Source: Chryseobacterium sp. MA9 (GTDB taxonomy: Bacteria > Bacteroidota > Bacteroidia > Flavobacteriales > Weeksellaceae). Taken from it: a stretch of 64,000 bases of DNA. The translations under genes and the position numbers were made by a program. Of this stretch, positions 37,288-56,016 are shown in pieces. The notes under the pieces were generated by a model. The model worked only from the letters and a program-made list of their open reading frames with translations. It searched no databases and was not told the DNA's origin. The stretch is from positions 1,178,001 to 1,242,000 of the forward strand of contig NZ_CP075170.1 in assembly GCF_024399315.1 (NCBI RefSeq), given 5' to 3'. Positions within the stretch are counted from its first letter, which is position 1, and each line of letters starts with the position of its first letter.

Positions 37288-37302
37288 AAATATCTTGCGT
37301 TT

Positions 37303-37836
37303 TTATTTTATTAAGTTTACTGTTCTGTTCTTAGTGTTTACTGCTACTTTAAAGCATTCTTTATTTTCATATTGGAGTTCGTTATTATAAACTACCACCT
37401 GAAAATCTTCTTTATCATTTAATTCTAAAACCTCTTTATCCAGATTATAGATTTCAATATTATATTTTTTAAGCTCATTTCTGAAGAACTGATTGGTAAT
37501 AAGAACATCCATAACATCAGTTCTCTTCACTACAAAATCATCAACATCCTTACGATATGCTTCTCTCCATCTTTTTCCATATTTTCTTTCTATTGCGGCA
37601 TATGTTCTTTTATTAATAGCGTCTATTTTCTTCATCTCATCAGGTTCTACCAGACAGCCACCAACAGAATAATGTTTGATTTTCCATTTTTCAGAAATAC
37701 CATCCATAGCTTCATATCGTTCCATTGCGGGAAGACCATACCCATAGATCCAATAATAGCCTCCATGATAACTTCCCCTATCTTCTTTACAAGAAAACAG
37801 TATCATTATTAAAGGAAGAAATCCGAAAATCTTCAT
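37303..37836 (-). CDS. Predicted lipoprotein embedded in the glycogen operon
   Basis: 177 residues. A short signal peptide ends in the lipobox LFSC (Cys16), followed by KEDRGSYHGGYYWIYGYGLP. The mature part is basic and helical (INKRTYAAIERKYGKRWREAYRKDVDDF) with two more Cys residues (CLVEP, CFKVAV). No known domain is recognised. It lies 4 bp after glgA and 15 bp before glgC in the same direction, so it is co-transcribed with the glycogen genes, although a secreted lipoprotein has no obvious place in cytoplasmic glycogen synthesis. Confidence 0.8.
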   Translation of the reverse strand: MKIFGFLPLIMILFSCKEDRGSYHGGYYWIYGYGLPAMERYEAMDGISEKWKIKHYSVGGCLVEPDEMKKIDAINKRTYAAIERKYGKRWREAYRKDVDDFVVKRTDVMDVLITNQFFRNELKKYNIEIYNLDKEVLELNDKEDFQVVVYNNELQYENKECFKVAVNTKNRTVNLIK

Positions 37837-37840
37837 TGTA

Positions 37841-39247: not shown

Positions 39248-39250
39248 TCC

Positions 39251-41200
39251 TTATCTCTTGTGTTTAATTCTGTGTAATTTATACTTTTTATCTTTCTTCT
39301 GTCTTAAAATAATTCCTGCCAATGGCGGTAATTTCACAGTCATTGATTTTGGATATCCTCTCCATTCTTCATCCTTTTCTTCCAGAATTTCAGGTTCTAC
39401 TCCGCTTCCGCTGTATTTTTCATCATCAGAATTTAAAACAACCTCCCAATGAGTTCCTGCAGGAATCCCGATTTTATAATCCAGTACTTTGGGAGCCAGA
39501 TTTAGAGCTACCATAGCAACATCATCTTTTCGTTTTCCTTTTCTCAGGTATACATACACTGAGTTTTCCAGATCATCTGCTTCTACCCACTCAAAACCAT
39601 GTTTATCAAACTGATTTTCATAAAAGGCAGATTCTGATGTATACAGGTGATTCAGTTCTTTAACGATTTCCTGCATTCCTTTATGAACAGGATATTTCAG
39701 CAAATGCCAGTCGAGACTTCGGGTAAAGTTCCATTCACTCGTCTGCCCGAATTCATCCCCCATGAAAAGCAGTTTGGCTCCGGGATGGGTATACATGTAT
39801 ACATATAAGGTGCGCAGATTGGCAAATTTCTGCCATTCATCACCTTTCATTTTATAGATCAGACTTGCTTTTCCGTGTACGACTTCATCATGTGACAAAG
39901 GCATCATATAATTTTCATTATACATATACATAGAAGCAAACGTCAGCTTATGATGATGGAATTTACGATTATCAAAATCTTCTTTGAAATAATCCAAAGT
40001 GTCATGCATCCAGCCCATCATCCATTTCATTCCAAATCCTACTCCACCGTCATGCACGGGTTTTGTAAGCATAGGGAAATCTGAGCTTTCCTCCGCTATG
40101 GTCATGATATTATTTCCAAATTCCTTATAAACTGCAGTATTAAATTCCTGCAGAAAGGTTTTCGCTTCCAGATTTACATTGGTTCCGTAGATATTCGGTT
40201 CCCATTCGCCCTCATTCCTTGAATAATCCAGATGAAGCATTGAAGTTACGGCATCCACACGCAATCCATCAGCATGATAGCGGTCCAGCCAGAACATAGC
40301 ATTTGAAATCAGAAAAGATTTGACTTCATTTCTTCCGTAATTGAAAATATGGGATTTCCAATCGGGATGAAAACCTTTTCTAGGATCTTCATGTTCATAG
40401 AGATATGATCCATCAAAACGGTGAAGACCATTAGCATCTCCCGGAAAATGAGACGGAACCCAATCCAGGATAACACCTATATTATTTTTATGAAGTTCAT
40501 CAATGAGAAACATCAGATCCTGCGGTGAACCGAAGCGTGAAGTAGCTGCGTAAAAACCTGTAATCTGGTATCCCCAGCTTGGATCATATGGATACTCCAT
40601 CACAGGCATAAACTCTACGTGGGTAAAACCCATTTCATTGACATAGGGAACCAGCTTTTCCGCAATATCCCGATAATTTAAAAACTGACCCGGATTATCA
40701 CCTTCCCTCACCCAGGAACCAAGGTGCAGCTCATACACTGATATAGGAGCTTCAAGTCTGTTTCTTTCCCAGCGTTTATCCATCCACTCCTGATCATTCC
40801 ATTCATACCAGGTGGTAGAAACCAAGGAAGCCGCCTGAATATTCTGTTCCCAGCTTACGGCATAAGGATCGCTTTTTTCCAGGATCTCGCCTCTTGCTGT
40901 TTCAATGGCATACTTGTATAATGTTCCCCAGGTTAATCCTTCAATAAATCCTTCCCAAATTCCTGATCCATCCCATCTTGGAAACAAAATATGATCTTTA
41001 TGATTCCAGTTATTAAAATTTCCGATCACGGAAACTTTCTTTGCATTAGGTGCCCACACTGAAAAGTACACGCCCTTCACGCCATCTTTTTCTGCAGAAT
41101 GTGCTCCAAATTTACCATACAGCTTATAATGTCTACCTTCTTTGAAAAGATACACATCATGATCGGTGAAAAGCGTGTAGGTTTTAACAGAATTCATCAA
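39251..41200 (-). CDS. glgB: 1,4-alpha-glucan branching enzyme (GH13)
   Basis: 649 residues. The N-terminal CBM48 contains GVYFSVWAPNAKKVSVIGNFNNWN. The GH13 barrel shows region I VILDWVPSHF, region II GLRVDAVTSML with the nucleophile Asp, region III MTIAEESSDFP with the acid Glu, and region IV LSHDEVVHGK. The C-terminal beta domain ends with a Lys/His-rich tail (KKDKKYKLHRIKHKR). It creates alpha-1,6 branches. First gene of the operon; the 195-bp gap to the divergent esterase has no exact TAnnTTTG, only TAGTTTC at about 41233-41239. Confidence 0.97.
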   Translation of the reverse strand: MMNSVKTYTLFTDHDVYLFKEGRHYKLYGKFGAHSAEKDGVKGVYFSVWAPNAKKVSVIGNFNNWNHKDHILFPRWDGSGIWEGFIEGLTWGTLYKYAIETARGEILEKSDPYAVSWEQNIQAASLVSTTWYEWNDQEWMDKRWERNRLEAPISVYELHLGSWVREGDNPGQFLNYRDIAEKLVPYVNEMGFTHVEFMPVMEYPYDPSWGYQITGFYAATSRFGSPQDLMFLIDELHKNNIGVILDWVPSHFPGDANGLHRFDGSYLYEHEDPRKGFHPDWKSHIFNYGRNEVKSFLISNAMFWLDRYHADGLRVDAVTSMLHLDYSRNEGEWEPNIYGTNVNLEAKTFLQEFNTAVYKEFGNNIMTIAEESSDFPMLTKPVHDGGVGFGMKWMMGWMHDTLDYFKEDFDNRKFHHHKLTFASMYMYNENYMMPLSHDEVVHGKASLIYKMKGDEWQKFANLRTLYVYMYTHPGAKLLFMGDEFGQTSEWNFTRSLDWHLLKYPVHKGMQEIVKELNHLYTSESAFYENQFDKHGFEWVEADDLENSVYVYLRKGKRKDDVAMVALNLAPKVLDYKIGIPAGTHWEVVLNSDDEKYSGSGVEPEILEEKDEEWRGYPKSMTVKLPPLAGIILRQKKDKKYKLHRIKHKR

Positions 41201-41395: not shown

Positions 41396-42517
41396 ATGAG
41401 GTTTGAACTTTATACCGAAGAAAAAGATGACAGACCGGTATTTATTACCGGAAATTTCAACAGCTGGAATCCCAAAGACTACAATTTCCAGCTTACACAA
41501 ACTGACTCCTCCAATTACTTTATAGAAATTGAAGATCAGCTTCTGCCAGAAGAAATTGATTATAAATTCACAAAAGGAGGCTGGGAGAATGTGGAACTGG
41601 ACCAATATGGAAATATTACTCCCAACCGCAAAGTAAAAAGATCTGTCGGCAAAACTTCTGATACAATAGAAAAGTGGAGATTAAACTGGGGACCGTTCAA
41701 AGAAGAATATTATCCCATTGCTGAAGTAATTTCCGAAAATTTTTATATCCCGCAGCTTGACCGCCACCGTAAAGTTTGGGCACTGCTTCCCTATGATTAT
41801 CATACAACAGATAAGCGATATCCTGTTTTATATCTTCAGGATGCCCAGAACTTATTCAATGAAGGAAGTGGCTTCGGAAACTGGGAAATTGATAAAAAGC
41901 TGTCTATTCTTGCAGAGTATGGCCGTGGTGACCTTATCATCATTGCCATAGAACACGGCAGTGAGGAAAGAATTAAAGAATATATTTTCGATAATGATCA
42001 TGTAGCCAACGGTTCTGAGGGAAAAAAATATATCCGTTTTATTGCAGATACTTTAAAACCTTTTGTAGATGAAAATTACAGAACAAAAAAAGACCGCGAC
42101 AATACCGGGATTGGAGGCAGTTCATTGGGCGCACTGATCAGCATATACAGTGGGTTTCTTTATCCTGAAGTCTATTCCAAATTACTGATCTTCTCACCTT
42201 CGCTTTGGGTAGAACCTAACAATAACTTCCCAATGATGAATTTCAGGGTTCCTTTTAAAACAAAAATTTATCTTTATGGAGGTGGTCAGGAAGGGTCTAA
42301 AATGGTCAAAAGAATTCATATTTTTGAAGAATATCTGAAAAGATGGGAAGAGAAAAAGCTTTTTGATTTTGAATTTAAAACCAATATCAATCCTGAGGGC
42401 ACCCATAATGAATTTTACTGGTCACAGGAGTTTCCAAGAGCCATTGAATGGCTGTTCTATGACAATACAGAAAACCCTGTTGAAGTAAAGCCACAACAAC
42501 AAAGCATTAAAAACTAA
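41396..42517 (+). CDS. Esterase with N-terminal glycogen-binding-like (E-set/CBM48-type) domain
   Basis: 373 residues. Residues 1-85 form an E-set domain with PVFITGNFNSWNPKDYNFQL, the pattern of AMPK-beta/CBM48 glycogen-recognition domains. Residues 105-360 are an alpha/beta-hydrolase of the esterase D/Fes group: KVWALLPYDYH, ILYLQDAQNLF-type start (RYPVLYLQDAQNLFNEG), nucleophile Ser in GIGGSSLGAL, acid/His region near EGTHNEFYWSQEFPRAIEWL. It is divergent from glgB. A carbohydrate-targeted esterase role is plausible but unproven. The domain order argues that the hydrolase is brought to glycogen or another alpha-glucan. Confidence 0.85.
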   Translation: MRFELYTEEKDDRPVFITGNFNSWNPKDYNFQLTQTDSSNYFIEIEDQLLPEEIDYKFTKGGWENVELDQYGNITPNRKVKRSVGKTSDTIEKWRLNWGPFKEEYYPIAEVISENFYIPQLDRHRKVWALLPYDYHTTDKRYPVLYLQDAQNLFNEGSGFGNWEIDKKLSILAEYGRGDLIIIAIEHGSEERIKEYIFDNDHVANGSEGKKYIRFIADTLKPFVDENYRTKKDRDNTGIGGSSLGALISIYSGFLYPEVYSKLLIFSPSLWVEPNNNFPMMNFRVPFKTKIYLYGGGQEGSKMVKRIHIFEEYLKRWEEKKLFDFEFKTNINPEGTHNEFYWSQEFPRAIEWLFYDNTENPVEVKPQQQSIKN

Positions 42518-42609: not shown

Positions 42610-44025
42610 ATGAAACTAATTAATAAAAAAAACAAAAATTACACTCAGGTCTTCCACCTATTTACAGAGGAAGAATGGACAAAATCCAGTAAAAATTTCA
42701 ATAAAAACATTTCAACTTTTTTTACAGGAAAGAAGTATGAAGTTTTCATCAATGCTCATGAAGAAGGAATTACCTATTTCATTGGATTAGGAAAATCTAC
42801 GTTACAAAATTTCGAAATCCAGCAGGTTGCGGCCAAATTCTCACAAACACAGAAAGAAAAACTTCATGCAGTGCCTACATTAGCTCTGGCAGACTTCATG
42901 AATGAAAAACAATTTGAGGAATTTGTAAAGGGACTTTTAGCCGGAACTTATAATTACCCTTTTGAGAAGAAACATACTTTCTGGAATACAAAATTTGAAT
43001 TGCATTTTGAAAATGTAAGCCAGAAAAAATTAGACCATATCAGCCAGAAAACAGAAGCTCTGATTAACGGACAGACCACTTGCCAGGACTGGCTTAACAA
43101 ACCTGCCAATCTTAAAAAACCGGATATCTTAAGCGCATACCTTAAAAATTTGGCAAAAAAATATGAATTAAAATATACAGTATTCAACAGGAAGAAATGT
43201 GAAGAGCTAGGATTAGGCGCTTATCTTTCAGTCAATCAAGGAAGCGCTTATGATGCAGCGTTCACTATTTTAGAATATAAAACTACGGTTAAAAATGCCA
43301 AGACTTTCGGACTGGTTGGAAAATGTGTATTGTTTGATACTGGAGGAATATCAATAAAAAGCTCTGCCAATCTGCATTATATGAAATCTGATATGGGAGG
43401 CGCTACAGCTGTTTTGGGAACTTTAATTTATGCTGCAGAAATGCAACTTCCTGTGAACATTATTGCTGTTCTTCCTATTACAGATAATGCTGTTTCAGAA
43501 AAAGCCCTGCTTCCAAGTGATGTGATTACAGCCTACAACGGAAAAACCATTGAAGTACTTGATACTGATGCCGAAGGCCGTTTAATCCTTGCAGACGGAT
43601 TATCTTATCTTTCTAAAAACTACAAAACAGATTTTCTTATTGATCTGGCTACTTTAACAGGAAGCTCTGTACGCATGTTTGGAGACACTTGTGCCGCGAT
43701 GTTCTCCAATAATGAGGAGCTGAAAAATAATCTGATAAAAACCGGAGATCAAACCAATCAAAGAGTATGGAATCTCCCTTTATGGGACGTCTGGAAAGAC
43801 GATATTCAGTCTGATGTAGCCGATATGAAAAACATCTCTATGAAGCCTGTTGGGGACTGCATTATTGCAGCAAAATTCTTAGAGCAATTCATTGAAAACC
43901 ACCCTAAATGGGCTCATTTGGATATTGCCGGAGTAGCCTTCGGAAGTGTAGGCTATGCCAAAGAAAAAGCAGCAACAGGTTTCGGGGTTCAACTACTCGT
44001 GAACTTAATTGAAAATTATCACTAA
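42610..44025 (+). CDS. M17 leucyl aminopeptidase family protein
   Basis: 471 residues. The catalytic C-terminal domain has VLFDTGGISIKSSANLHYMKSDMGGA in pieces around 240-265 (Lys250 and Asp261 as metal ligands) and the family signature DTDAEGRL at 318-325; the first residue is Asp instead of the usual Asn. Further conserved are DLATLTGS and PVGDCIIAAKFLEQF. The N-terminal domain is divergent. These di-metal enzymes release N-terminal residues in the cytoplasm. It precedes the amidoligase cluster in the same direction, separated by an 18-bp inverted repeat. Confidence 0.92.
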   Translation: MKLINKKNKNYTQVFHLFTEEEWTKSSKNFNKNISTFFTGKKYEVFINAHEEGITYFIGLGKSTLQNFEIQQVAAKFSQTQKEKLHAVPTLALADFMNEKQFEEFVKGLLAGTYNYPFEKKHTFWNTKFELHFENVSQKKLDHISQKTEALINGQTTCQDWLNKPANLKKPDILSAYLKNLAKKYELKYTVFNRKKCEELGLGAYLSVNQGSAYDAAFTILEYKTTVKNAKTFGLVGKCVLFDTGGISIKSSANLHYMKSDMGGATAVLGTLIYAAEMQLPVNIIAVLPITDNAVSEKALLPSDVITAYNGKTIEVLDTDAEGRLILADGLSYLSKNYKTDFLIDLATLTGSSVRMFGDTCAAMFSNNEELKNNLIKTGDQTNQRVWNLPLWDVWKDDIQSDVADMKNISMKPVGDCIIAAKFLEQFIENHPKWAHLDIAGVAFGSVGYAKEKAATGFGVQLLVNLIENYH

Positions 44026-44166: not shown

Positions 44167-45381
44167 ATGGAGAAGAAAACTATTGTGTGTATTTCGTGCT
44201 ATTACAAAGGCTACGATTTTATGGACGAAATGAAGAATCTCGGCAATAAAATCATTTTAGTAACCTCAGAAAATCTTAAAGAAAAAAACTGGCCCTGGCA
44301 CGCAATTGATGAGGTATTTTATATGCCAGAACTCAAACCGTCCGTATGGAATCTGGAACATCTGATTCAGGGATTTTCCCACCTGATGAAAACCAGAAAA
44401 GTAGATGCTGTAGTGGCATTGGATGATTATGACGTAGAAAAAGCTGCATTAATCAGGGAAACATTCCGCATTCCGGGAATGGGACAGACTACACACAGAT
44501 ATTTCAGAGATAAACTGGCTATGCGCCAAAAAGCAAAAGATTCAGAGATCAGTGTTCCTGAATTTACAGCTGTATTCAATGATAATGAAGTCAATGAATT
44601 TACAGACCGCGTTCCTGCACCATGGGTACTGAAACCCCGTTCTGAAGCTTCAGCATCAGGAATCAAGAAAATAACTTCCAAGGAACAACTTTATGAGGCG
44701 CTAGAGACACTGGGAGAAGAACGCCATCTTTTTTTACTGGAAAGTTTTAAACCCGGAGACGTTTACCATGTAGACAGCCTTACTTTTAATAAAAAAATTG
44801 TATTCACTTCTGCTTCAAAATACCTTGCTCCTCCTATGCAGGTTTCCCATGAAGGCGGAGTATTCCGATCCAAGACTTTAGGAAGATATTCCGAGGAGTT
44901 TAAGGCATTGGAAGAAATTAATGCCAAAGTTCTTTCCAATTTTGGATTGATTAATGGCGCAACCCATACAGAATTTATCCGAGGAAGAGAAGATGGGAAA
45001 TGGTACTTCCTTGAAACCTCATCAAGAGTTGGTGGTGCTCATATTCCTGATCTTGTAGAAGCCTCAAGCGGTATTAATATCTGGAGAGAATGGGCTAAAA
45101 TTGAAGATGCCCTTCTGAGAGGAAATGATTACAGTGTTTCACCACCTACAGGATATTATTCGGGGCTGATTGTTGCTTTGATTAAAGATAAAGAACCGGA
45201 TTACAGTAATTTTGAATGTGAAGAAGTTGTAAAATTCCTTCCGATAGATTACCATGTAGGAATTGTTTACAAATCCGGAGATGCCTCCGTTGTACAGGAC
45301 AGGCTGGATTCTGCTGCAGATATGATTCATGCAGATATGCTGAACATTCTGCCTCCCAAAAGCAATAAGTTGAGTTCCTAA
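44167..45381 (+). CDS. ATP-grasp amidoligase 1
   Basis: 404 residues. An N-terminal Rossmann-like pre-ATP-grasp domain (TIVCISCYYKGYDFMDEM, VDAVVALDDYDVEKAALI) is followed by the ATP-grasp domain. Phosphate-binding region: PAPWVLKPRSEASASGIKKI; hinge: HLFLLESFKPGDVYHVDSLT; metal-binding: THTEFIRG ... WYFLETSSRVGG. The overall plan is that of ATP-grasp carboxylate-amine ligases that activate an acid as acyl phosphate. It heads a colinear cluster with two more ATP-grasp genes, a GCS2 ligase and an amidotransferase; product unknown. Confidence 0.9.
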   Translation: MEKKTIVCISCYYKGYDFMDEMKNLGNKIILVTSENLKEKNWPWHAIDEVFYMPELKPSVWNLEHLIQGFSHLMKTRKVDAVVALDDYDVEKAALIRETFRIPGMGQTTHRYFRDKLAMRQKAKDSEISVPEFTAVFNDNEVNEFTDRVPAPWVLKPRSEASASGIKKITSKEQLYEALETLGEERHLFLLESFKPGDVYHVDSLTFNKKIVFTSASKYLAPPMQVSHEGGVFRSKTLGRYSEEFKALEEINAKVLSNFGLINGATHTEFIRGREDGKWYFLETSSRVGGAHIPDLVEASSGINIWREWAKIEDALLRGNDYSVSPPTGYYSGLIVALIKDKEPDYSNFECEEVVKFLPIDYHVGIVYKSGDASVVQDRLDSAADMIHADMLNILPPKSNKLSS

Positions 45382-45384
45382 AAA

Positions 45385-45663
45385 ATGAAGAGTGACATTG
45401 ATATTCAAAATGTTATTGAATTCATAATATACAATTTGCCAGAAGATTCCGTACTAAAATGTAATTTAGAGAATATAGATCCGGGAAAATGGCAAAGCAA
45501 AGCATATTATCGATTCGTTGACTCAACTCATGCCAACAAAACTGGATCAAAATGGATCTTTAAAGAAAATATAATCCTCGAACATCCGAAATTAGGAACA
45601 ATCGTACTGGATATTTTGGAAAAAGATCAGCTTGGAGGAATTGAATTTATCAAATTAATATAA
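45385..45663 (+). CDS. Hypothetical protein of the amidoligase cluster
   Basis: 92 residues, 3 bp after ATP-grasp 1. Soluble and mixed alpha/beta by appearance (DIDIQNVIEFIIYNL, KWIFKENIILEHPKLGTIVLDILEKDQLGGIEFIKLI). No metal- or phosphopantetheine-binding motif (no DSL) and no double-Gly terminus, so it is not an evident carrier protein. Tight spacing implies co-translation with the ATP-grasp enzyme. I do not recognise a family. Confidence 0.72.
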   Translation: MKSDIDIQNVIEFIIYNLPEDSVLKCNLENIDPGKWQSKAYYRFVDSTHANKTGSKWIFKENIILEHPKLGTIVLDILEKDQLGGIEFIKLI

Positions 45664-45691
45664 GTACAGTATTAAAATTAAACAAGGAAAA

Positions 45692-46405
45692 ATGCCTCAC
45701 ATAGAACATACAGAGTATTATTCAAATATATTGGGAACAAGTCTTCAGGTAGAAGTGACCGGGCATTACGGCCACCCTATTATTATGTTTCCTACTTCCC
45801 AGGGACAATACACCCAAAATCATGATTTTCATCTTAACGGAAGTATCAACTGGTTTATAGAACAGGGAAAAGTAAAACTTTACAATGTTCAGACCATCGA
45901 CAGCTGGAGTTTTTATGATGACAAAATTTCTCCTCAGCAAAGAATAAGAAACTATGAACGATATGTACAGTTTCTTATCAAGGAATTTGTTCCCTATATT
46001 CAGAAACTTCATAAAACCCATCGCGTAGCAGTAGCCGGAGCAAGTTTTGGAGGATATCACGCTGCCAATTTTGCTTTCAGGTTTCCTGATGTGGTTTCCC
46101 ATCTGTTTTGTCTTTCCGGAGCGTTCAGCATAAGAAATTTCATGGATGGCTATTCTGATGAAATAGTATATTTCAACTGCCCCAGGGAATTTGTAAGAAA
46201 TGATGATGCCTGGAAATATAAACACATGCATATTGTACTCAGCACTTCTGATCAGGATATCTGCAAAGATAAAAACGTTGAAATGGCTGAAATTTTAAGA
46301 CTGAAAGGGATAGACTTCTGGTATGACGAAAGAAAATGGATAGGCCACGACTGGCCGCTGTGGAGAATGGTCTTTCCAACCTTCATAGGAACATTTTTCT
46401 CTTAA
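45692..46405 (+). CDS. Esterase-like alpha/beta-hydrolase of the amidoligase cluster
   Basis: 237 residues. The nucleophile elbow is VAGASFGGYHAANF (GxSxGG type) and the catalytic His is likely in WIGHDWPLWRMVF. The N-terminal half includes GHYGHPIIMFPTSQGQYTQNHDF, matching the putative-esterase (esterase D-like) group often found next to ATP-grasp/GCS2 genes. It could hydrolyse an ester or amide product, act in transfer, or proofread. Cytoplasmic; no signal peptide. Confidence 0.87.
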   Translation: MPHIEHTEYYSNILGTSLQVEVTGHYGHPIIMFPTSQGQYTQNHDFHLNGSINWFIEQGKVKLYNVQTIDSWSFYDDKISPQQRIRNYERYVQFLIKEFVPYIQKLHKTHRVAVAGASFGGYHAANFAFRFPDVVSHLFCLSGAFSIRNFMDGYSDEIVYFNCPREFVRNDDAWKYKHMHIVLSTSDQDICKDKNVEMAEILRLKGIDFWYDERKWIGHDWPLWRMVFPTFIGTFFS

Positions 46406-46459
46406 AACAATAAAAAGGCAAATAGAAAAAAATATACACCCATCTTAAAAACAAAAATT

Positions 46460-47413
46460 ATGACAAAAAAAGTAGGAATTCTTTTCGGTATGGAAGACAC
46501 GTTTCCCTGGGCATTTATAGACAAAGTGAATGAACTGGGAGGTGGAGAAATCGTAGCTGAACCCGTTACCATTGACAAATTAGAACAGGGTGCAGATTAT
46601 GGTTATGCGGTAATCATCGACAGAATTTCACAGGACGTTCCCTTTTACAGAGCTTATCTGAAAAATGCAGCACTTAATGGCACTTATGTAATCAACAATC
46701 CGTTTTGGTGGAGTGCTGATGAGAAATTTTTCAACAATGCCCTGATGTCTAAACTTGGAATTCCGCTTCCTAAGACCGTTCTGCTTCCGTCACACGAAAG
46801 ACCTGACAATACTTCTGAAACTTCATTCAGAAACCTGAAATTTCCGCACGACTGGGAATATATCTTTAATTATGTAGGATTTCCGGCATACATGAAACCT
46901 CACGACGGTGGTGGCTGGAAAAATGTGTACAGAGTGGAAAACCCGGATGATCTTTGGAACAAATTGGGAGAAACAGAACAGCTTGTAATGATGGTACAGG
47001 AAGAAATTATCTTTGATGATTATTACAGAGTTTACTGCCTGGGCAGAAAATATGTCCACATCATGCCTTACGAGCCCAGAAATGCTCCTCACCTGAGATA
47101 TGCCACGACTCATCAGACACAAGGCGAAGAACTTGAAAAACTACTAAAAACCATTCATGATTATACCATTACTATGAATGAAGCGTTGGGATATGATTTC
47201 AATACAGTAGAATTTGCGGTAAGAGACGGCATCCCTTATGCCATTGACTTCTGCAACCCGGCTCCAGATGCAGACCGAAATTCTGTAGGAGAAGAAAATT
47301 TTGCATGGATTATAGAGCACGCTGCAAAACTGGCTATAGAAAAAGCTAAAGAATATGTTCCTGGGAAACCTAATATTACTTGGGGAACCTTTGTGAAAGA
47401 TTCCATAAAATAA
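46460..47413 (+). CDS. ATP-grasp amidoligase 2
   Basis: 317 residues. N-terminal pre-ATP-grasp domain (KKVGILFGMEDTFPWAFIDKV, GYAVIIDRISQDVPFYRAYL), then an ATP-grasp of RimK/D-Ala-ligase-like layout: PAYMKPHDGGGWKNVYRV for phosphate binding, VMMVQEEIIFDDYYRVYCLGRKYVHIM for the hinge and adenine region, and FNTVEFAVRDGIPYAIDFCNPAPDAD for metal binding. The WWSADEKFFNNALMSKLGIPLPKT segment is the usual helix before the ATP-grasp core. The next gene begins 29 bp later. Confidence 0.9.
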   Translation: MTKKVGILFGMEDTFPWAFIDKVNELGGGEIVAEPVTIDKLEQGADYGYAVIIDRISQDVPFYRAYLKNAALNGTYVINNPFWWSADEKFFNNALMSKLGIPLPKTVLLPSHERPDNTSETSFRNLKFPHDWEYIFNYVGFPAYMKPHDGGGWKNVYRVENPDDLWNKLGETEQLVMMVQEEIIFDDYYRVYCLGRKYVHIMPYEPRNAPHLRYATTHQTQGEELEKLLKTIHDYTITMNEALGYDFNTVEFAVRDGIPYAIDFCNPAPDADRNSVGEENFAWIIEHAAKLAIEKAKEYVPGKPNITWGTFVKDSIK

Positions 47414-47442
47414 CATTGAAAGAAATAAAAAACACAAGAAAA

Positions 47443-48561
47443 ATGCATCAGTTTACTATTGGAATTGAAGAAGAATATCAGATCATTGATGTGGAAAGCA
47501 GAGATCTGGTTTCTCACGTTTCAAAAATCATTGAGGGTGGCAAAGCGGTTTTAAGTGAAAATTTAAAACACGAAATGCACGAATCCATGATTGAAATGGA
47601 AACAGGGATCTGCCAGAATATTCAGGAAGCCAGAGCAGAATTGACTAATTTAAGACGTCATCTTATCAACATTGCTCATGAGCAAGGATTGCGGGTTTCC
47701 GGAGGAGGTACCCACCCTTTTTCACATTGGTCAGATAACAATATCACCCAGGGAGAAAGATACATCAAAATCGTGGACGATATGGGAGATGTAGCCCGTG
47801 AAAATCTTATTTTCGGACTGCACGTCCACATTGGGATTCCTAATCGTGAAGAAGGCGTGAGAATTCAGAATGTAATGCGTTACTTTCTTCCTCACGTATA
47901 TGCTCTTTCTACCAATTCACCATTCTGGATCGGAAGATACACAGGATTTAAATCTTACAGACAGGAAATCTTCGTGAAATTCCCGAGAACCGGTATTCCG
48001 AGTTATTTTAACTCTCTGGCAGAATTCGACAGCTATGTAGATCTTCTTGTAAAAACAGGAACCATCGACAATGCCAAGAAAATCTGGTGGGATTTACGGG
48101 TACATCCGTTCTACCCTACAATTGAATTCAGAATTTGTGATATGCCGCTGAGAATTGATGAAACGGTATGCCTTGCTGCTATCATGCAGAGTCTCGTTGC
48201 CAAAATCTATAAACTTCACCAGCAAAACCTGAGCTTCAGAAGCTACAGAAGACTGCTGCTGAATGAAAATAAATGGCGTGCCTCTAAAAGCGGTATTGAA
48301 GCCCATCTGATTGATTTTGGAAAAGAAGAATCTGTTCCATATCCTCATTTATTGAAAGAACTTTTAGAATTCATTGATGATGTGGTAGACGATTTGGGAT
48401 GCCGCCACGAAGTGGAATATGCCTGGAAGATTCTTGAAAACGGAACCGGCGCAGACAGGCAGCTTCAGATCTTTAAGGAAACAGGTGATCTCACGAAAGT
48501 CGTTGATTATATGATCTCTGAAACGGAGTATGGCATAACACATGGTGAACCTGCTTCATAA
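47443..48561 (+). CDS. GCS2-type carboxylate-amine ligase (YbdK-like)
   Basis: 372 residues from MHQFTIGIEEEYQII at 47443; an upstream in-frame ATG at 47380 overlaps the previous gene by 34 bp and is unlikely. The first block IGIEEEYQIID contains the metal-binding Glu residues of glutamate-cysteine ligase type 2. RVSGGGTHPFSHWSD and FGLHVHIGIPNREEG hold further metal ligands, and TIEFRICDMPLRIDET is the family C-terminal motif. These enzymes join an amine to the gamma- or alpha-carboxylate of an amino acid such as Glu. Substrates here are unknown. Confidence 0.92.
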   Translation: MHQFTIGIEEEYQIIDVESRDLVSHVSKIIEGGKAVLSENLKHEMHESMIEMETGICQNIQEARAELTNLRRHLINIAHEQGLRVSGGGTHPFSHWSDNNITQGERYIKIVDDMGDVARENLIFGLHVHIGIPNREEGVRIQNVMRYFLPHVYALSTNSPFWIGRYTGFKSYRQEIFVKFPRTGIPSYFNSLAEFDSYVDLLVKTGTIDNAKKIWWDLRVHPFYPTIEFRICDMPLRIDETVCLAAIMQSLVAKIYKLHQQNLSFRSYRRLLLNENKWRASKSGIEAHLIDFGKEESVPYPHLLKELLEFIDDVVDDLGCRHEVEYAWKILENGTGADRQLQIFKETGDLTKVVDYMISETEYGITHGEPAS

Positions 48562-48594
48562 TATTTTTGGTAACTTTACAAAAAATATGATGTA

Positions 48595-49428
48595 ATGAAA
48601 GATATTCGAATTGCTCTGCTGGACATGAACAACAATCATGTGAATCAAGGTTTTAGGAACATTAAAGAAATTTCTGAAGCATTTCAGCAGAACTCTGAAG
48701 AAAATGTTGTCATCAAGACATTTGATGTGAGGTTTAAAGATGAAATGCCGGAGATTGGAGACTTTGATATTTTCATTTCTTCAGGTGGTCCGGGAAATCC
48801 ACATCGTGAAGGCTTTGCCTGGGAAGACAGATTTGCCCATTTTTTAGATTCTGTTTTTGAGCATAATAAATATAATGAAGATAAAAAATATCTTTTCCTT
48901 ATCTGTCACTCATTCCAACTGGCAAGTATTCACTGGAAACTGGGTAATATCTGCAAAAGAAAATCTTATTCTTTCGGAGTAATGCCTGTCCATAAAACAG
49001 ACGAAGGCAAAGAAGAGTTTTTGTTCAAAAATCTTCAGGATCCTTTTTATGCAGTAGATTCCAGAGCTTATCAGTTTATTGAACCGAGTCATGAACGTTT
49101 TGAAGAACTTGGAATGACCATCATGGCGATTGAAAAATTCCGTCCTCATATCAATCTGGAAAGAGCGATAATGGCGGTTCGTTTTTCAGATGAGATATTC
49201 GGAACACAGTTTCACCCTGAAGCTAATCCTGAATCTTTGATCGAAAATCTGAAAGATGAAAAAAACAGAGAAGCCATGATCGAAAATTTCGGTATGGAAA
49301 AATATCTTGAAACTATCGACAGAATAGACGATGAAGATAAAATCATTCTGACCAGACATCAGATACTTCCGAGATTCCTTCAGTTTGCAAAAAAAAACAT
49401 TTTGAAAGGAGCTGAGACTTTGGCTTAA
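48595..49428 (+). CDS. Class I glutamine amidotransferase of the amidoligase cluster
   Basis: 277 residues. GATase triad: the Cys in FLICHSFQLA, and the His and Glu in GTQFHPEANPE. The oxyanion region is ISSGGPGNP. The C-terminal extension (about 215-277, EKNREAMIENFGMEKYL, ILTRHQILPRFLQFAKK) is outside the standard domain. No partner synthase is fused, so ammonia would be delivered to another cluster enzyme, or the domain acts as a gamma-glutamyl hydrolase instead. The second option is attractive beside a GCS2 ligase (inference). Confidence 0.9.
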   Translation: MKDIRIALLDMNNNHVNQGFRNIKEISEAFQQNSEENVVIKTFDVRFKDEMPEIGDFDIFISSGGPGNPHREGFAWEDRFAHFLDSVFEHNKYNEDKKYLFLICHSFQLASIHWKLGNICKRKSYSFGVMPVHKTDEGKEEFLFKNLQDPFYAVDSRAYQFIEPSHERFEELGMTIMAIEKFRPHINLERAIMAVRFSDEIFGTQFHPEANPESLIENLKDEKNREAMIENFGMEKYLETIDRIDDEDKIILTRHQILPRFLQFAKKNILKGAETLA

Positions 49429-49430
49429 AA

Positions 49431-49564
49431 GGCTGGAAGCTGGAAGAAGGATGCTGGAAGTTACTATCGGTTAAGATTATTTATTATTCTTTTATTTATA
49501 AACTAATAATTTAAATTTCAGAATTAAAAACTTCCCTCTCCCAGCTTCCAACTTCCAGCAGCTT
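49431..49564. repeat. GGAAG-type word inverted repeat inside the amidoligase cluster
   Basis: Left arm 49431-49462 (GGCTGGAAGCTGGAAGAAGG then ATGCTGGAAGTT) and right arm 49529-49564 (AACTTCCCTCTCCCAGCTTC then CAACTTCCAGCAGCTT) are near reverse complements around a 66-base AT-rich spacer. Both arms border TTACTAT (49461-49467 and 49563-49569). It separates the amidotransferase from the third ATP-grasp gene. Confidence 0.8.
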
Positions 49565-49620
49565 ACTATAACAATCGGGCAGAAATGTTCGATTTTTTTA
49601 ACATCACAAAGAAAAAAAAT

Positions 49621-50799
49621 ATGATTCCAAAATACAGAAAACAGTATAATCAGGAGTTCTCAGATGAAAAGTACAATCAATTAAAAAATATACTTGCAGA
49701 AAAAGGAGGTACTGCACCTATTTTCAGGGTTTCAGAAAGCCCTATTTTCTTGACTAAAGAATTTGAAAATAAACTTATTGATGCCAGTGAAAGTATTATC
49801 AGTCAGATTAAGGCAATGCCTGCAGAAACACTTCGTAAAGCAATCCCTGATAACTGCAAAGTTCCCAATGATACGGATCAGCCTCATTTTTTCACGATAG
49901 ATTTTGGAGTTTGCAAAAGTGAAAACGGAGCAATAGAACCTCAGCTGATAGAACTTCAGGCGTTTCCCTCTTTGTATGCTTTTCAGAAAGTGTATGAAGA
50001 AACTTATTGTGAAGTTTACCCTTTTCTTTCGGAACTCAAAAATCCGATGCCTCATGAAACCTTTAAAAACTACTTGAAGGAACTTATTGTAGGAGATGAA
50101 AATCCTGAAAATGTAATCCTGCTTGAGATCTTCCCGGAAAAACAAAAAACGGCCATTGATTTTGCTTTAACAGAGAAATTATTAGGAATCAAAACAGTAT
50201 GTCTGACAAAAGTAAAGAAAGAAGGCAAAAAGCTGTATTATGAAAACAATGGAAATCTGATAGAAATCAAAAGAATTTACAACCGTGTTATATTTGATGA
50301 ACTGGACAATATTCCAGATCTTGCCACTGAGTTTGATTTCCGTGAAGAGGTCGATGTCAAATGGATCACTCATCCAAACTGGTTCTTTAAAATCTCAAAA
50401 TTCCTTTTACCATTATTAAAACACCAGTTTGTTCCGAAAAGCTATTTCTTACATGAATTTCCGGAAAATGAAAACCTTGAAGACTTTGTATTGAAACCTT
50501 TATTTTCATTCGCAGGAAGTGGTGTTAATTTAAATCCTACCAAAGAGATTACAGATTCCATTCAGGACAAAGAAAACTATATTCTGCAGAGAAAAGTGTA
50601 TTATGAACCTATTTTTGAAGATATCAACGGAGAATTTTCAAAAGCAGAGATCCGTTTGTTGTATATTTGGCGGGAAAATGACGAACGCCCTATCCTATTG
50701 GAAAATCTTGGGAGAATGACTAAAGCCGCCATGGTAAATGTAGATTTCAATAAAAAAGATGCCATCTGGATTGGAAGCTCAAATGCATTTTTTGGATAA
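49621..50799 (+). CDS. ATP-grasp-like protein 3 of the amidoligase cluster
   Basis: 392 residues from MIPKYRKQYNQEF at 49621; an ATG at 49585 would add 12 residues. The protein is divergent, but the C-terminal half looks like an ATP-grasp: DFVLKPLFSFAGSGVNL as phosphate-binding strand-loop, YILQRKVYYEPIF as hinge, and EIRLLYIW ... PILLENLGRMTKAAMVNVDF as the metal region. The N-terminal part has FGVCKSENGAIEPQLIELQAFPSLYAFQ, resembling glutathionylspermidine-synthase-like or COG-type ATP-grasp proteins. Substrate unknown. Confidence 0.78.
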   Translation: MIPKYRKQYNQEFSDEKYNQLKNILAEKGGTAPIFRVSESPIFLTKEFENKLIDASESIISQIKAMPAETLRKAIPDNCKVPNDTDQPHFFTIDFGVCKSENGAIEPQLIELQAFPSLYAFQKVYEETYCEVYPFLSELKNPMPHETFKNYLKELIVGDENPENVILLEIFPEKQKTAIDFALTEKLLGIKTVCLTKVKKEGKKLYYENNGNLIEIKRIYNRVIFDELDNIPDLATEFDFREEVDVKWITHPNWFFKISKFLLPLLKHQFVPKSYFLHEFPENENLEDFVLKPLFSFAGSGVNLNPTKEITDSIQDKENYILQRKVYYEPIFEDINGEFSKAEIRLLYIWRENDERPILLENLGRMTKAAMVNVDFNKKDAIWIGSSNAFFG

Positions 50800-50820
50800 A
50801 AAATTTAAAACTAATAATAC

Positions 50821-51279
50821 ATGGAAGAAAAGTCGACAGCTTTTGCTGAATTTGACAACAACAGTTTAACACGAAGAAGAAACTTATTACCCACCTGGAT
50901 TAAAGTTTTCTTATGGTTCTTTTTAATCGGGAGCGCAATATCTGCTATCTTATTGATTGCAGGCTCTCTGCTGACTCATATCTCTTTATCGATATATGGG
51001 ATCAATGCTAATCATCCTTATTCAATGACAGGACTTTTGATCAGCTTCCTTTTCCTGTTCAAAGGTATTGTTGCTTACGGACTTTGGTTTGAACAAAAAT
51101 GGGCAGTACAAGCTGCAATAGTTGATGCCATCATAGGAATTGCTATCTGTCTCATTATGATGGCAATAATTCCATTTACCATTCCAACGATCAGTTTTAC
51201 GCTTAGATTAGAACTCATTCCTTTGTATTTCTATCTCGTGAAAATGCAGAGCATAAAGAAAACCTGGGAAAGCTTATAA
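50821..51279 (+). CDS. Small four-helix membrane protein at the end of the amidoligase cluster
   Basis: 152 residues with a charged N-terminus (TAFAEFDNNSLTRRRNLL) and four membrane segments (about 25-48, 68-88, 96-117, 122-140). It follows ATP-grasp 3 by 21 bp and precedes the terminator 51286-51309, so it is likely the last gene of the unit. No recognised domain. It could be an unrelated membrane protein or help export or anchor the cluster's activity. Confidence 0.72.
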   Translation: MEEKSTAFAEFDNNSLTRRRNLLPTWIKVFLWFFLIGSAISAILLIAGSLLTHISLSIYGINANHPYSMTGLLISFLFLFKGIVAYGLWFEQKWAVQAAIVDAIIGIAICLIMMAIIPFTIPTISFTLRLELIPLYFYLVKMQSIKKTWESL

Positions 51280-51285
51280 AAAACA

Positions 51286-51309
51286 AAACCTCCGAAATGT
51301 CGGAGGTTT
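51286..51309 (+). terminator. Terminator of the amidoligase cluster
   Basis: AAACCTCCGA-AATG-TCGGAGGTTT followed by ATTTTTTT. The stem is the same as in the E2 terminator at 15889-15911. Confidence 0.9.
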
Positions 51310-52102: not shown

Positions 52103-54733
52103 TTACACGTTTTTGTCGTCTTCCAACAATTCCCTCGCCTGATATTCCTGTACCAGATCAATTGCATTGGAAATAACATCACTTAATGCCGTGATAAACG
52201 TTCCCTCTTCCGCCATTCCCATGGCGTGTTTTAATGCTTCGATCTCTTTAGGAATAATCTCGTAACTCACATCTCTGCCTGCAGCGTTAATCCCGTCAAT
52301 AATCAATCCGTTAATTTCCTCTTCCGTTCTTCCACGAAGATGCTTTTCATTTCGGATGATAATATAATCAAACATTCTTCCTGCAATCTTTCCACATTCT
52401 CTAATATCGTTATCCCTTCTGTCTCCAACACCGGATATAATTCCAATTTTCTTTGTTGACTCAACATTTTTAAGATAATCTTCAATAGCTTCATACCCTG
52501 AAGGATTATGAGCGAAGTCAATCAACACCTTAAAGTTTTTGAATTTAAAGACATTCAATCTTCCCGGTGTAAGCTGAGCACTTGGAATAAATGTTCTCAA
52601 AGAATTGGAAATATCTTCAATTCCGAATCCATAAAGGTAACTTGCCAAACTAGCTGCTAATACATTTTCAATCATGAACCTGGCTTTTCCTTCCATTGTG
52701 ATCGGGAAATCTTTGGCTTTTCCTATTCTGATTTTCCAGTCTCCTTTTTTAATGGTAACGAATCCTTCTTCATACACGCAGGTAATCTTTCCTTCTTTCG
52801 CAAATTTTACAATATGCGGATTGTTTTCATCCATACTGAAAATAGCCACATTAGAATCGAGATCATTCACAATCTTCATAGAATATTCATTATCGGCATT
52901 CAGTACACTCCAGCCACTCTTCTTGACACTGTCCAGTACTACACGTTTCACCTTGGTAAGGTCTCTCAGGTTGTGAACGTCATTCATTCCCAGATGATCT
53001 TCTTCAATATTGGTAAGAACTCCAATATCGCATTGTGAAAAACCAAGCCCGGAACGTAAAATTCCTCCTCTGGCAGTTTCCAGTACCGCAAACTCTACCG
53101 TTGGATCTTTTAGGATAAATTCTGCTGAAAGCGGTCCTGTAGTATCCCCTTTTGACAACATTGTGTTTTGAATGTAAATTCCGTCCGAAGTCGTGAATCC
53201 CACTCTGTAACCGTTACTTTTTACAATATGTGAAATAAGTCTTGTAGTCGTTGTTTTTCCATTGGTACCCGTCACTGCAATAATTGGAATGGTAAAAGGT
53301 TTGCCTTGTGGATAAAGCATATCTACTACCGGTGCAGCTACATTTCTTGGCAGTCCTTCACTTGGAGCCAGGTGCATTCTGAAGCCCGGAGCAGCATTTA
53401 CTTCAATAATAGCTCCGCCACTTTCTTTTAAAGGCTGAGTTAGGTTTTCCGCCATCACATCAATACCGCAGACATCCAATCCGATAATTTTGGAGATTCT
53501 TTCTGCCATCGTAATATTTTCAGGATGTACCATATCTGTTACATCAATGGATGTTCCTCCGGTTGAAAGATTCGCTGTTGATTTCAAATAGACCACTTCT
53601 CCTCTTTGAGGAATAGTTTCCAAAGTATATTGAAGTTTATCAAGTAATTCTAAAGTGTCTTTATCAACTTCAATTTCAGTAAGAACATTTTCATGGCCAT
53701 AGCCTCTTCTCGGGTCTTTATTTTCTTTTTCAATAAGCTGTTGAAGGTTCAGTTCTCCATCTCCTACAACATGAGCTGGAACTCTTCTGGCAGCGGCCAC
53801 CATTTTATTATTGATCACCAGTATACGGAAATCGTAACCTGTAATATATTTTTCAACGATTACTTTTCTGGAATATTTTTGGGCATGTTCCAGACCTATT
53901 TTAGCAGATTCCCATTCGTTGACATTAATGGAAGAACCTTTTCCGTGATTTCCATCCAAAGGTTTTAAAACAATAGGATAACCAATTTTTCTGATTACAG
54001 CGTTTAATCCTTCTTCGTCTACAACCAAATCACCAATCGGCACCGGAATAGCAGCATCATGAAGCATTCTTTTCGTTAATTCTTTATTACATGCGATATC
54101 AACGGCAATAGAACTTGTTTTTCCGGTAATGGTAGCCTGAAATCTTTGCTGATTTACTCCATATCCCAATTGTACAAGGGAATTTGTTCCCAATCTGATC
54201 CAAGGAATTCTTCTGGAAGCAGCTTCTTCTACAATACTTCCTGTAGATGGTCCAAGACGGACACGTTCTCTGATTTCTTTTAATCTATGAATACAGGCAT
54301 TTAAATCATAATCCTTCCCTTCTATCAGGGCTTCTGCAATCTTCGTTGCCTCCTCAGCAGCGTAGATTCCCGCATTTTCTTCAATATAATTGAAAACTAC
54401 ATTATACACTCCCGGAGTTTTTGTTTCCCGGGTTCTTCCAAACCCCACATCCATTCCTGCCAGTGTCTGTATTTCCAAAGCGATATGCTCAATGACATGC
54501 CCCATCCAGGTTCCTGTTTCCACTCTATGAAAAAAACCACCTTCCACTCCTTCTGAGCATCGATGGGTAATCAATGAGGGTATTAATTTTTCAATCCTTT
54601 CCCTGAATCCTTCGATTTTATTGGTAGGATAATTCTCCATTTCTTCTAAGTCTAACCTCATCTGTATCAGCTTCTTTCTTCTGATGCTCCAGATGTTAGG
54701 ACCTCTTAGTGCCTGAATCTTTTCGATTTTCAT
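52103..54733 (-). CDS. cphA: Cyanophycin synthetase
   Basis: 876 residues, standard CphA length. An N-terminal domain (1-160, with HRCSEGVEGGFFHRVETGTW and MGHVIEHIALEIQTLAG) leads to the ATP-grasp core with GYPIVLKPLDGNHGKGSSI at 251-269. The Mur-ligase-like half follows, with the P-loop GTNGKTTT at 489-496 and FAVLETARGGILRSGLGF. The enzyme builds multi-L-arginyl-poly-L-aspartate, the first half adding Asp and the second Arg. It is divergent from cphB and the isoaspartyl peptidase, together forming a full synthesis-breakdown module. Promoter element at 54778-54785. Confidence 0.96.
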   Translation of the reverse strand: MKIEKIQALRGPNIWSIRRKKLIQMRLDLEEMENYPTNKIEGFRERIEKLIPSLITHRCSEGVEGGFFHRVETGTWMGHVIEHIALEIQTLAGMDVGFGRTRETKTPGVYNVVFNYIEENAGIYAAEEATKIAEALIEGKDYDLNACIHRLKEIRERVRLGPSTGSIVEEAASRRIPWIRLGTNSLVQLGYGVNQQRFQATITGKTSSIAVDIACNKELTKRMLHDAAIPVPIGDLVVDEEGLNAVIRKIGYPIVLKPLDGNHGKGSSINVNEWESAKIGLEHAQKYSRKVIVEKYITGYDFRILVINNKMVAAARRVPAHVVGDGELNLQQLIEKENKDPRRGYGHENVLTEIEVDKDTLELLDKLQYTLETIPQRGEVVYLKSTANLSTGGTSIDVTDMVHPENITMAERISKIIGLDVCGIDVMAENLTQPLKESGGAIIEVNAAPGFRMHLAPSEGLPRNVAAPVVDMLYPQGKPFTIPIIAVTGTNGKTTTTRLISHIVKSNGYRVGFTTSDGIYIQNTMLSKGDTTGPLSAEFILKDPTVEFAVLETARGGILRSGLGFSQCDIGVLTNIEEDHLGMNDVHNLRDLTKVKRVVLDSVKKSGWSVLNADNEYSMKIVNDLDSNVAIFSMDENNPHIVKFAKEGKITCVYEEGFVTIKKGDWKIRIGKAKDFPITMEGKARFMIENVLAASLASYLYGFGIEDISNSLRTFIPSAQLTPGRLNVFKFKNFKVLIDFAHNPSGYEAIEDYLKNVESTKKIGIISGVGDRRDNDIRECGKIAGRMFDYIIIRNEKHLRGRTEEEINGLIIDGINAAGRDVSYEIIPKEIEALKHAMGMAEEGTFITALSDVISNAIDLVQEYQARELLEDDKNV

Positions 54734-54777
54734 AGTCTATTGGCATTTTAAAAGTTAACAATAACTCCTTTCATAGC

Positions 54778-54785
54778 CAAAGATA
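54778..54785 (-). promoter_or_regulatory. Predicted -7 element of cphA
   Basis: Minus-strand TATCTTTG followed by G, exact TAnnTTTG match, 44 bases before the cphA ATG. Confidence 0.5.
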
Positions 54786-54919
54786 ATGCAAAACCCAAAA
54801 CGAAACCATAGCAGATTTAAAGATTTGTCAAAAAAAAATAAATTTTAATTAACATTCCTAAAACATTAAAAATCAATTAAAGATGGCATGAAATTCGCGA
54901 AAGAATGTTAATTATTTTT

Positions 54920-54927
54920 TAATTTTG
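54920..54927 (+). promoter_or_regulatory. Predicted -7 element of cphB, possibly leaderless
   Basis: TAATTTTG, exact TAnnTTTG match. Only 4 bases separate it from the cphB ATG at 54932, so the mRNA should start at or near the start codon. No clear TTG upstream. Confidence 0.55.
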
Positions 54928-54931
54928 TACC

Positions 54932-55822: not shown

Positions 55823-56016
55823 CTTAGTTGGTAGTTAAAAATATTGCTAATCAGTATAAAAAATGGGACCTTGGTTTCATTTTTTTTTGTTTAAAACTGA
55901 AAGTTCAATGTTTAAAAAGCAATTCTATTTCAGGAAACAGAAAAATGTAGGAATTAATTAGAATTTATAAATTAACTTCGTAGAAGAATACATTTATCAA
56001 CTTTCATCTATATTTT

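What the first reader, a model, noticed from the sequence alone, without database searches (positions are those of the whole stretch)
44167..51279. Amidoligase cluster: three ATP-grasp proteins, GCS2 ligase, amidotransferase and esterase in one direction
Seen: seven or eight plus-strand genes (44167-45381, 45385-45663, 45692-46405, 46460-47413, 47443-48561, 48595-49428, 49621-50799, 50821-51279) with gaps of 3-54 bp, except one 192-bp gap holding a repeat, closed by a terminator at 51286-51309. Known: ATP-grasp and GCS2 enzymes form amide bonds through acyl phosphates. Class I GATases give ammonia or cut gamma-glutamyl bonds. Comparative work has linked such sets to peptide or metabolite synthesis. 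Inference: three or four ligases acting in sequence would make a short, ribosome-independent peptide or amide, with the GATase/gamma-glutamyl hydrolase and esterase trimming it. The product is not predictable from sequence.
Basis: partly seen in the sequence, partly recalled or inferred. Interest (0 to 1): 0.85.

Follow-up and report, generated by a model that had tools for sequence, protein, structure and literature searches.

The report
Bacteroidota peptide/amide ligase pathway operon
A set of five to eight enzymes, kept together across a whole bacterial phylum, looks like an unstudied pathway that joins small molecules by amide bonds, probably a glutathione-like gamma-glutamyl peptide or amide whose identity is still unknown.

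Summary
The window is from a Chryseobacterium. Eight plus-strand genes form the conserved block: PF00756 esterase (41396), M17 aminopeptidase (42610), ATP-grasp AG1 (44167), esterase (45692), ATP-grasp AG2 (46460), GCS2 ligase (47443), class-I GATase (48595) and ATP-grasp AG3 (49621). The 92-aa gene (45385) and the membrane gene (50821) are restricted to some Chryseobacterium. All eight, colinear, were found in 16 of 19 Weeksellaceae loci.

The core esterase-AG2-GCS2-GATase-AG3 was complete at 93 Bacteroidota loci. Across 395 genomes AG2, GCS2 and AG3 co-occur strongly (phi 0.80-0.86), and in at least 45 genomes although AG2 and AG3 lie on different contigs or far apart. Where AG3 is missing, another circularly permuted ATP-grasp often sits beside AG2 (16 of 24 such genomes; 0 of 24 with AG3).

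AG2 models as a RimK/LysX-type ligase, AG3 as a member of the glutathione synthetase / glutathionylspermidine synthetase / YgiC-YjfC fold. The ligases therefore probably act in one pathway, making a gamma-glutamyl peptide or amide. The product is unknown. Links to cyanophycin, RiPPs and bacillithiol were unsupported.

The parts
41396..42517 (+). Accessory gene 1: PF00756 esterase with an N-terminal domain that faintly resembles CBM48
   Evidence: PF00756 E 3.8e-23; CBM_48 only E 0.085, below its cut-off; first gene of the conserved block in 17 of 19 Weeksellaceae loci
42610..44025 (+). Accessory gene 2: M17 leucyl-aminopeptidase family
   Evidence: PF00883 E 5e-106; K238, D243, D261, D320, E322 in 19/19 homologues; near the core in other orders or orientations in L080, L169, L173, L176
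44167..45381 (+). Accessory gene 3, AG1: ATP-grasp ligase, ATP-grasp_4 family
   Evidence: PF13535 E 4.7e-8; K116, K156, E269, E283, R287 invariant; also near the core in Saprospiraceae and Polaribacter loci
45385..45663 (+). 92-aa ORF, found in a few Chryseobacterium only; not part of the conserved system
   Evidence: no family match; found in L118 and partly in L196 among five loci tested
45692..46405 (+). Core gene 1: PF00756-family serine hydrolase
   Evidence: PF00756 E 3.9e-9; S118 and H219 in 36/37, D189 in 37/37; directly upstream of AG2 in most loci
46460..47413 (+). Core gene 2, AG2: RimK/LysX-fold ATP-grasp ligase, no Pfam family
   Evidence: model pLDDT 85; RimK Z 20.6, rmsd 2.9 over 263 residues; 134 of 395 Bacteroidota genomes
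47443..48561 (+). Core gene 3: GCS2 (YbdK-family) carboxylate-amine ligase
   Evidence: PRK13515 534.6 bits, cut-off 371; profile also reaches plant glutamate-cysteine ligase, E 1.4e-5
48595..49428 (+). Core gene 4: class-I glutamine amidotransferase-fold enzyme
   Evidence: PF00117 E 3.7e-9; Cys-His-Glu triad in 35/35; 44/80 AG2+ genomes and 0/40 AG2- genomes
49434..49567 (.). Inverted-repeat element in the 192-bp gap, part of it dispersed in this genome
   Evidence: two inverted-repeat pairs; 12 other genomic matches
49621..50799 (+). Core gene 5, AG3: circularly permuted ATP-grasp ligase of the GSS/GspS/YgiC-YjfC fold
   Evidence: model pLDDT 90; YjfC/YgiC Z 25.0; 114 of 395 genomes
50821..51279 (+). 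Small membrane protein found in some Chryseobacterium; not part of the conserved system
   Evidence: weak DUF2165 match below cut-off; found in L035, L118, L125, L196
51286..51309 (.). Bidirectional intrinsic terminator-like stem
   Evidence: 10-pair stem with T tracts on both strands

Best explanation
The block encodes one enzyme pathway, conserved across Bacteroidota, that builds a small amide-linked molecule in the cytoplasm without the ribosome. SHOWN: AG2, GCS2 and AG3 are inherited as a set; in genomes without AG3 another circularly permuted ATP-grasp protein usually takes its place; active-site residues are intact; AG2 models as a RimK/LysX-type fold and AG3 as the fold of glutathione synthetase / glutathionylspermidine synthetase / peptide-spermidine ligase. 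INFERRED: GCS2 activates a side-chain carboxylate (by analogy with glutamate) and makes a gamma-glutamyl-type bond. AG2 adds an amino acid in the alpha-peptide manner of RimK/LysX. AG3 activates the terminal carboxylate of that peptide and couples it to an amino acid or an amine. The class-I GATase-fold enzyme, replaced at its place by an M29-type peptidase in other lineages, hydrolyses an amide bond for turnover or editing rather than donating ammonia. The PF00756 hydrolase acts on an ester or thioester form. AG1, the M17 peptidase and the second esterase extend or recycle the product in Weeksellaceae and some others. The product would be glutathione-like in build, but is not known.
For: Co-occurrence over 395 genomes: AG2/AG3 110 shared, phi 0.84; AG2/GCS2 phi 0.80; AG3/GCS2 phi 0.86. 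In at least 45 genomes AG2 and AG3 are on different contigs or far apart (counted by hand), so linkage alone does not explain it. AG3 replacement: 16/24 AG2+AG3- genomes carry the alternative enzyme, beside AG2; 0/24 AG2+AG3+ do. The alternative enzyme has an R-x-D ... E-x-N motif like that of E. coli GspS (by eye). GATase was found only with AG2 (44/80 against 0/40), and the M29 peptidase, which sits at its place between GCS2 and AG3, never with GATase (7 against 44, no overlap). Folds. YgiC/YjfC are annotated peptide-spermidine ligases (Pederick 2023 as cited in PMC12568646). Strong purifying selection, dN/dS 0.01-0.08.
Against: No substrate has been identified. AG3 lacks the Arg of the R-x-D motif (A/T/Q/C/G at position 92) and has Gln for Asn in E-x-N (correspondence read by eye), so its acyl substrate may differ from that of GspS. 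YbdK-type GCS2 enzymes are not reliable glutamate-cysteine ligases (own knowledge). GCS2 is missing in five AG3+ genomes and in several lineages with the alternative ligase. 29 of 80 sampled AG2+ genomes have neither GATase nor M29 peptidase. Genomes are not independent samples, so the p-values are too small.
Confidence: 0.5

Rival explanations
1. Amine utilisation: an amine is gamma-glutamylated by GCS2, processed, and released by the class-I GATase, as in the Puu putrescine route.
For: An argD/putrescine-aminotransferase-like class-III transaminase follows AG3 in Dyadobacter, Lacihabitans, Arundinibacter, Telluribacter and Larkinella; arginine decarboxylase speA is beside AG3 in L198; an Amidohydro_3 gene is next to AG3 or GCS2 in five loci of three families.
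Against: A catabolic route does not need two further ATP-consuming ligases; no amine oxidase or aldehyde dehydrogenase is among the 25 most frequent neighbour families; the transaminase was seen only in Cytophagales loci.
Confidence: 0.15
2. Protein or peptide tagging: AG2, like RimK, adds residues to the terminus of a protein and the other enzymes edit the tag.
For: AG2 is closest in fold to RimK and LysX, which act on carrier proteins.
Against: No conserved small protein or carrier sits in the block: gaps between the core genes are mostly short and the 92-aa ORF is restricted to a few Chryseobacterium; GCS2 and AG3 relatives act on small molecules.
Confidence: 0.12
3. A second low-molecular-weight thiol, a true glutathione analogue with cysteine.
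For: AG3 shares the eukaryotic glutathione synthetase fold and the GCS2 profile reaches plant glutamate-cysteine ligase; the PRTGIP motif of GCS2 resembles plant DRTGMLP, while YbdK has PDNGPM.
Against: BshC of bacillithiol synthesis is in 69 of 70 genomes with or without AG2, so a thiol is probably already present; no cysteine-specific signature could be tested.
Confidence: 0.12
4. Storage metabolism: the block works with the neighbouring cyanophycin or glycogen genes.
For: CphA, cyanophycinase, an Asparaginase_2-family gene and glycogen genes flank it in Chryseobacterium.
Against: AG2 and CphA are hardly coupled across the phylum (phi 0.09), and outside Weeksellaceae I found no genome with CphA close to AG2 in the position tables; glycogen genes are next to it in Weeksellaceae and one other locus.
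Confidence: 0.04
5. RiPP (graspetide) maturation by the ATP-grasp enzymes.
For: AG2 also resembles the graspetide ligases PsnB and MdnC (Z about 17-18).
Against: No conserved precursor gene was seen in the block; three ligases of different folds with GATase and esterases is not a graspetide arrangement; RimK matches better.
Confidence: 0.02

Closest known systems
Glutathione / glutathionylspermidine / trypanothione synthesis
   Same: A GCS2-fold gamma-glutamyl ligase (plants) followed by a circularly permuted ATP-grasp ligase of the GSS/GspS fold; peptidases that undo the bonds
   Different: A third ligase of RimK type is part of the set here; AG3 lacks the Arg of the R-x-D motif; no evidence for cysteine or spermidine; the organisms also carry BshC of bacillithiol synthesis
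E. coli YgiC and YjfC peptide-spermidine ligases (and fungal Cp1B of E-64 synthesis)
   Same: Same fold as AG3 (Z 25.0 for YgiC/YjfC, 22.3 for Cp1B); shared PxWxxI(S/N)K and KP...G motifs read by eye
   Different: 13-16% identity; Pfam GSP_synth below its cut-off; partner genes differ
RimK / LysX / ArgX ATP-grasp ligases
   Same: Fold of AG2 (Z 18-20.6); conserved D263 and N266 at the expected metal site
   Different: Below the NCBIfam cut-off (31.6 against 143.4 bits); no carrier protein seen; 12-18% identity
YbdK-family GCS2 carboxylate-amine ligases
   Same: Clear member by score
   Different: Fixed operon partners; PRTGIP motif where E. coli YbdK has PDNGPM
Amidoligase gene neighbourhoods predicted by Iyer et al. 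2009 (from memory; paper not held)
   Same: Same general idea: ATP-grasp and glutamine-synthetase-like-fold ligases with hydrolases in one neighbourhood
   Different: I could not check whether this exact set is in that paper

Membership tests
YbdK-family carboxylate-amine ligase (GCS2, 47443) | NCBIfam TIGR02050 / PRK13515 above cut-off | tested here: met
   303.3 against 176.4 and 534.6 against 371 bits
Glutamate-cysteine ligase (GCS2, 47443) | Forms gamma-glutamylcysteine | not testable with these tools
   plant GCL reached by profile, E 1.4e-5; R106 in 39/40 and R173 in 40/40 homologues
RimK family (AG2, 46460) | NCBIfam rimK_fam above cut-off | tested here: not met
   31.6 against 143.4 bits
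RimK family (AG2, 46460) | RimK/LysX-type ATP-grasp fold | tested here: met
   Z 20.6, rmsd 2.9, 263 aligned
Glutathionylspermidine synthetase family (AG3, 49621) | Pfam GSP_synth above gathering score | tested here: not met
   17.9 against 29.3 bits
Glutathionylspermidine synthetase family (AG3, 49621) | Circularly permuted GSS/GspS fold | tested here: met
   Z 20-25 to GspS, YgiC, YjfC, GSS, TryS; one other at 12.4, the rest 7.9 or less
Glutathionylspermidine synthetase family (AG3, 49621) | R-x-D and E-x-N active-site motifs | tested here: inconclusive
   D94 and E111 kept; Arg replaced by A/T/Q/C/G, Asn by Gln in 34/34; correspondence read by eye, the profile alignment covered only the C-terminal half
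Class-I glutamine amidotransferase (48595) | PF00117 and Cys-His-Glu triad | tested here: met
   E 3.7e-9; triad in 35/35
Class-I glutamine amidotransferase (48595) | Transfers ammonia to a synthetase partner | not testable with these tools
   an M29 peptidase at its place in other lineages argues for a hydrolase
Graspetide RiPP cluster | Conserved precursor peptide gene | tested here: not met
   mostly short gaps between core genes; 92-aa ORF restricted to a few Chryseobacterium
Cyanophycin locus | Coupled to CphA across the phylum | tested here: not met
   phi 0.09 over 395 genomes

The most novel reading that the evidence does not exclude
A previously undescribed, phylum-wide Bacteroidota metabolite: a gamma-glutamyl peptide capped with an amino acid or polyamine, made by three ligases of different folds and recycled by dedicated hydrolases. 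It would be a Bacteroidota counterpart of glutathionylspermidine or trypanothione.
Probability: 0.3. Interest if true: 0.85.

Novelty: new variant of a known kind. Interest (0 to 1): 0.62.

Why it matters
About a third of sampled Bacteroidota genomes carry this set and its product is unknown. AG2 and AG3 match no curated Pfam or NCBIfam family above its cut-off, so databases name them only loosely. The co-inheritance of three ligases makes a specific, testable claim: one lost metabolite in three different mutants. If the product is a glutathione-like conjugate, it would add a new small-molecule system to one of the most abundant environmental phyla.

Tried and rejected
Cyanophycin link: CphA is adjacent only in Chryseobacterium and a few relatives; phi 0.09. 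Glycogen link: adjacency mainly in Weeksellaceae. Replacement of bacillithiol: BshC is present in 69/70 genomes regardless of AG2. RiPP: no precursor seen. Plasmid carriage: no match to AG2 among 72,556 plasmids. Iyer et al. 2009 is not held; ten paper searches gave no description of this set. Sequence searches of AG2 and AG3 against the PDB gave nothing significant, or only E 0.002-0.006 with profiles. AG3 against the alternative ligase by profile gave no significant match. L155 was put into my aminotransferase profile by mistake; it is an apiosidase-like protein and is not counted. Substrate residues of GCS2 and AG3 could not be assigned without coordinates of the known complexes.
Full report
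THE OBSERVATION. The window lies at 1178001-1242000 of a single 4,996,258-base contig, 99.98% complete. AG2 is 99% identical to that of Chryseobacterium sp. CH25, C. contaminans and C. panacisoli, so the genus is Chryseobacterium. Pfam and NCBIfam confirm GCS2, class-I GATase, PF00756 esterase and ATP-grasp AG1; AG2 has no Pfam match and AG3 only a sub-threshold GSP_synth match. AG2, AG3 and GCS2 each give one match in this genome.

BORDERS. Comparison of 19 Weeksellaceae-family loci shows the order esterase-M17-AG1-esterase-AG2-GCS2-GATase-AG3, complete in 16. L030 lacks only AG3 in the stretch fetched; L046 and L047 have only the five-gene core. The 92-aa ORF and the membrane gene occur only in some Chryseobacterium. 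The 192-bp gap holds inverted repeats; 12 other matches to part of it lie elsewhere in the genome. The downstream terminator-like stem has T-runs on both strands. Whether the genes form one transcript was not tested; the M17-AG1 gap of 141 bp could hold a promoter.

SPREAD. AG2 was found in 134 of 395 Bacteroidota genomes and 89 of 170 genera. The named loci include Chryseobacterium, Elizabethkingia, Kaistella, Maribacter, Polaribacter, Dyadobacter, Runella, Larkinella, Hymenobacter, Algoriphagus, Mucilaginibacter and Saprospiraceae. The core esterase-AG2-GCS2-GATase-AG3 was complete at 93 of the loci fetched; many of these are close relatives. In most Cytophagia loci a second PF00756 esterase is divergent just upstream. 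AG1 and M17 adjoin the core in other orders or orientations in L080, in Saprospiraceae (L169, L173) and in Polaribacter (L176); AG1 also in L170 and L114. This supports a real but optional association. None was found on plasmids. Spread outside Bacteroidota was not examined beyond the best 80 loci.

CO-INHERITANCE. AG3 is in 114 and GCS2 in 129 of the same 395 genomes. AG2 and AG3 share 110, with only four AG3+ genomes lacking AG2 (phi 0.84); AG2/GCS2 phi 0.80, AG3/GCS2 phi 0.86. In at least 45 genomes AG2 and AG3 are on different contigs or far apart on one contig, counted by hand from the position tables. In most lineages with scattered genes all three are still present. The p-values ignore phylogeny and should not be taken literally; at the family level each of the 26 families with AG3 also has AG2.

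REPLACEMENTS. Among 24 AG2+ genomes without AG3, 16 have another circularly permuted ATP-grasp protein, beside AG2; among 24 with AG3, none. It has a sub-threshold CP_ATPgrasp_2 match and an R-M/L-D ... E-L/I-N motif like GspS (by eye). Most of the other eight AG2+AG3- genomes have a divergent AG2. The GATase is in 44 of 80 AG2+ genomes and 0 of 40 AG2- genomes. In five of the fetched loci an M29-type peptidase sits between GCS2 and AG3 in place of the GATase, and across the 80 genomes it is never found together with the GATase (7 against 44; Fisher p 0.003). That favours a hydrolytic role for the GATase; it does not prove it.

FOLDS. AG2: pLDDT 85; best matches RimK (Z 20.6), LysX/ArgX (18-20), then PsnB and D-Ala ligases (17-18). 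AG3: pLDDT 90; best matches YjfC and YgiC (Z 25.0), plant and human glutathione synthetase (24-25), GspS (24), Cp1B (22) and trypanothione synthetase (21); one putative gamma-glutamylcysteine synthetase at 12.4, everything else 7.9 or less. A shared fold is not a shared function. The E. coli record names YgiC and YjfC peptide-spermidine ligases, and PMC12568646 cites Pederick et al. 2023 for this and shows Cp1B to be an amide-forming ligase of the same fold. In AG3 D94, E111, K260, K292 and Q323 are invariant, but the Arg of R-x-D is replaced and the Asn of E-x-N is Gln. The GCS2 profile reaches plant glutamate-cysteine ligase, and GCS2 has PRTGIP where YbdK has PDNGPM.

MECHANISM. The best reading is a three-ligase route to a gamma-glutamyl-type peptide or amide, with hydrolases for turnover (0.5). 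Which bond is made first, and from which substrates, is inference. Hints of amines come from an argD/putrescine-aminotransferase-like gene after AG3 in Cytophagales and one speA beside AG3; both are sporadic. Selection is strong (dN/dS 0.01-0.08 for the eight genes).

VERDICT. Real, conserved, and uncharacterised as far as the held papers show. The chemistry is of a known kind; the combination and two of the ligase families appear new. Similar neighbourhoods may have been predicted in 2009 by Iyer et al., which I could not read.

Noticed in passing
52103-56859: Cyanophycin synthetase (-), cyanophycinase (+) and an Asparaginase_2-family gene (+) form a cyanophycin locus next to the block; it stays adjacent in several Chryseobacterium and CphA also in Halpernia.
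   Followed up: partly
36019-41200: Glycogen branching enzyme and, judging from relatives, further glycogen genes lie divergently upstream; the esterase at 41396 has an N-terminal stretch faintly like CBM48 (E 0.085).
   Followed up: partly
49434-49567: Inverted-repeat element, part of it matching 12 other places in this genome, three of them about 190 bp apart near G000:C1:1930496-1930908.
   Followed up: no
L148, L150, L152-L154, L157, L161, L163, L165, L172, L182, L190, L194, L195: An argD/putrescine-aminotransferase-like class-III transaminase lies directly or one gene after AG3 in Spirosomataceae and relatives.
   Followed up: partly
L091, L092, L198, L200, L202: An Amidohydro_3 gene lies next to AG3 or GCS2 in three families; it could be a further pathway enzyme.
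   Followed up: partly
L187, L189, L087, L114: An Asparaginase_2-family gene lies within a few genes of the core in Hymenobacter and other lineages, as in Chryseobacterium; may be chance.
   Followed up: no
G144, G170, G261, G420 (AG2 matches): AG2 carries one in-frame stop in these genomes; decay or assembly error.
   Followed up: no
L138: Chryseobacterium sp. E1 has most genes of the block split by frameshifts, probably sequencing errors.
   Followed up: no
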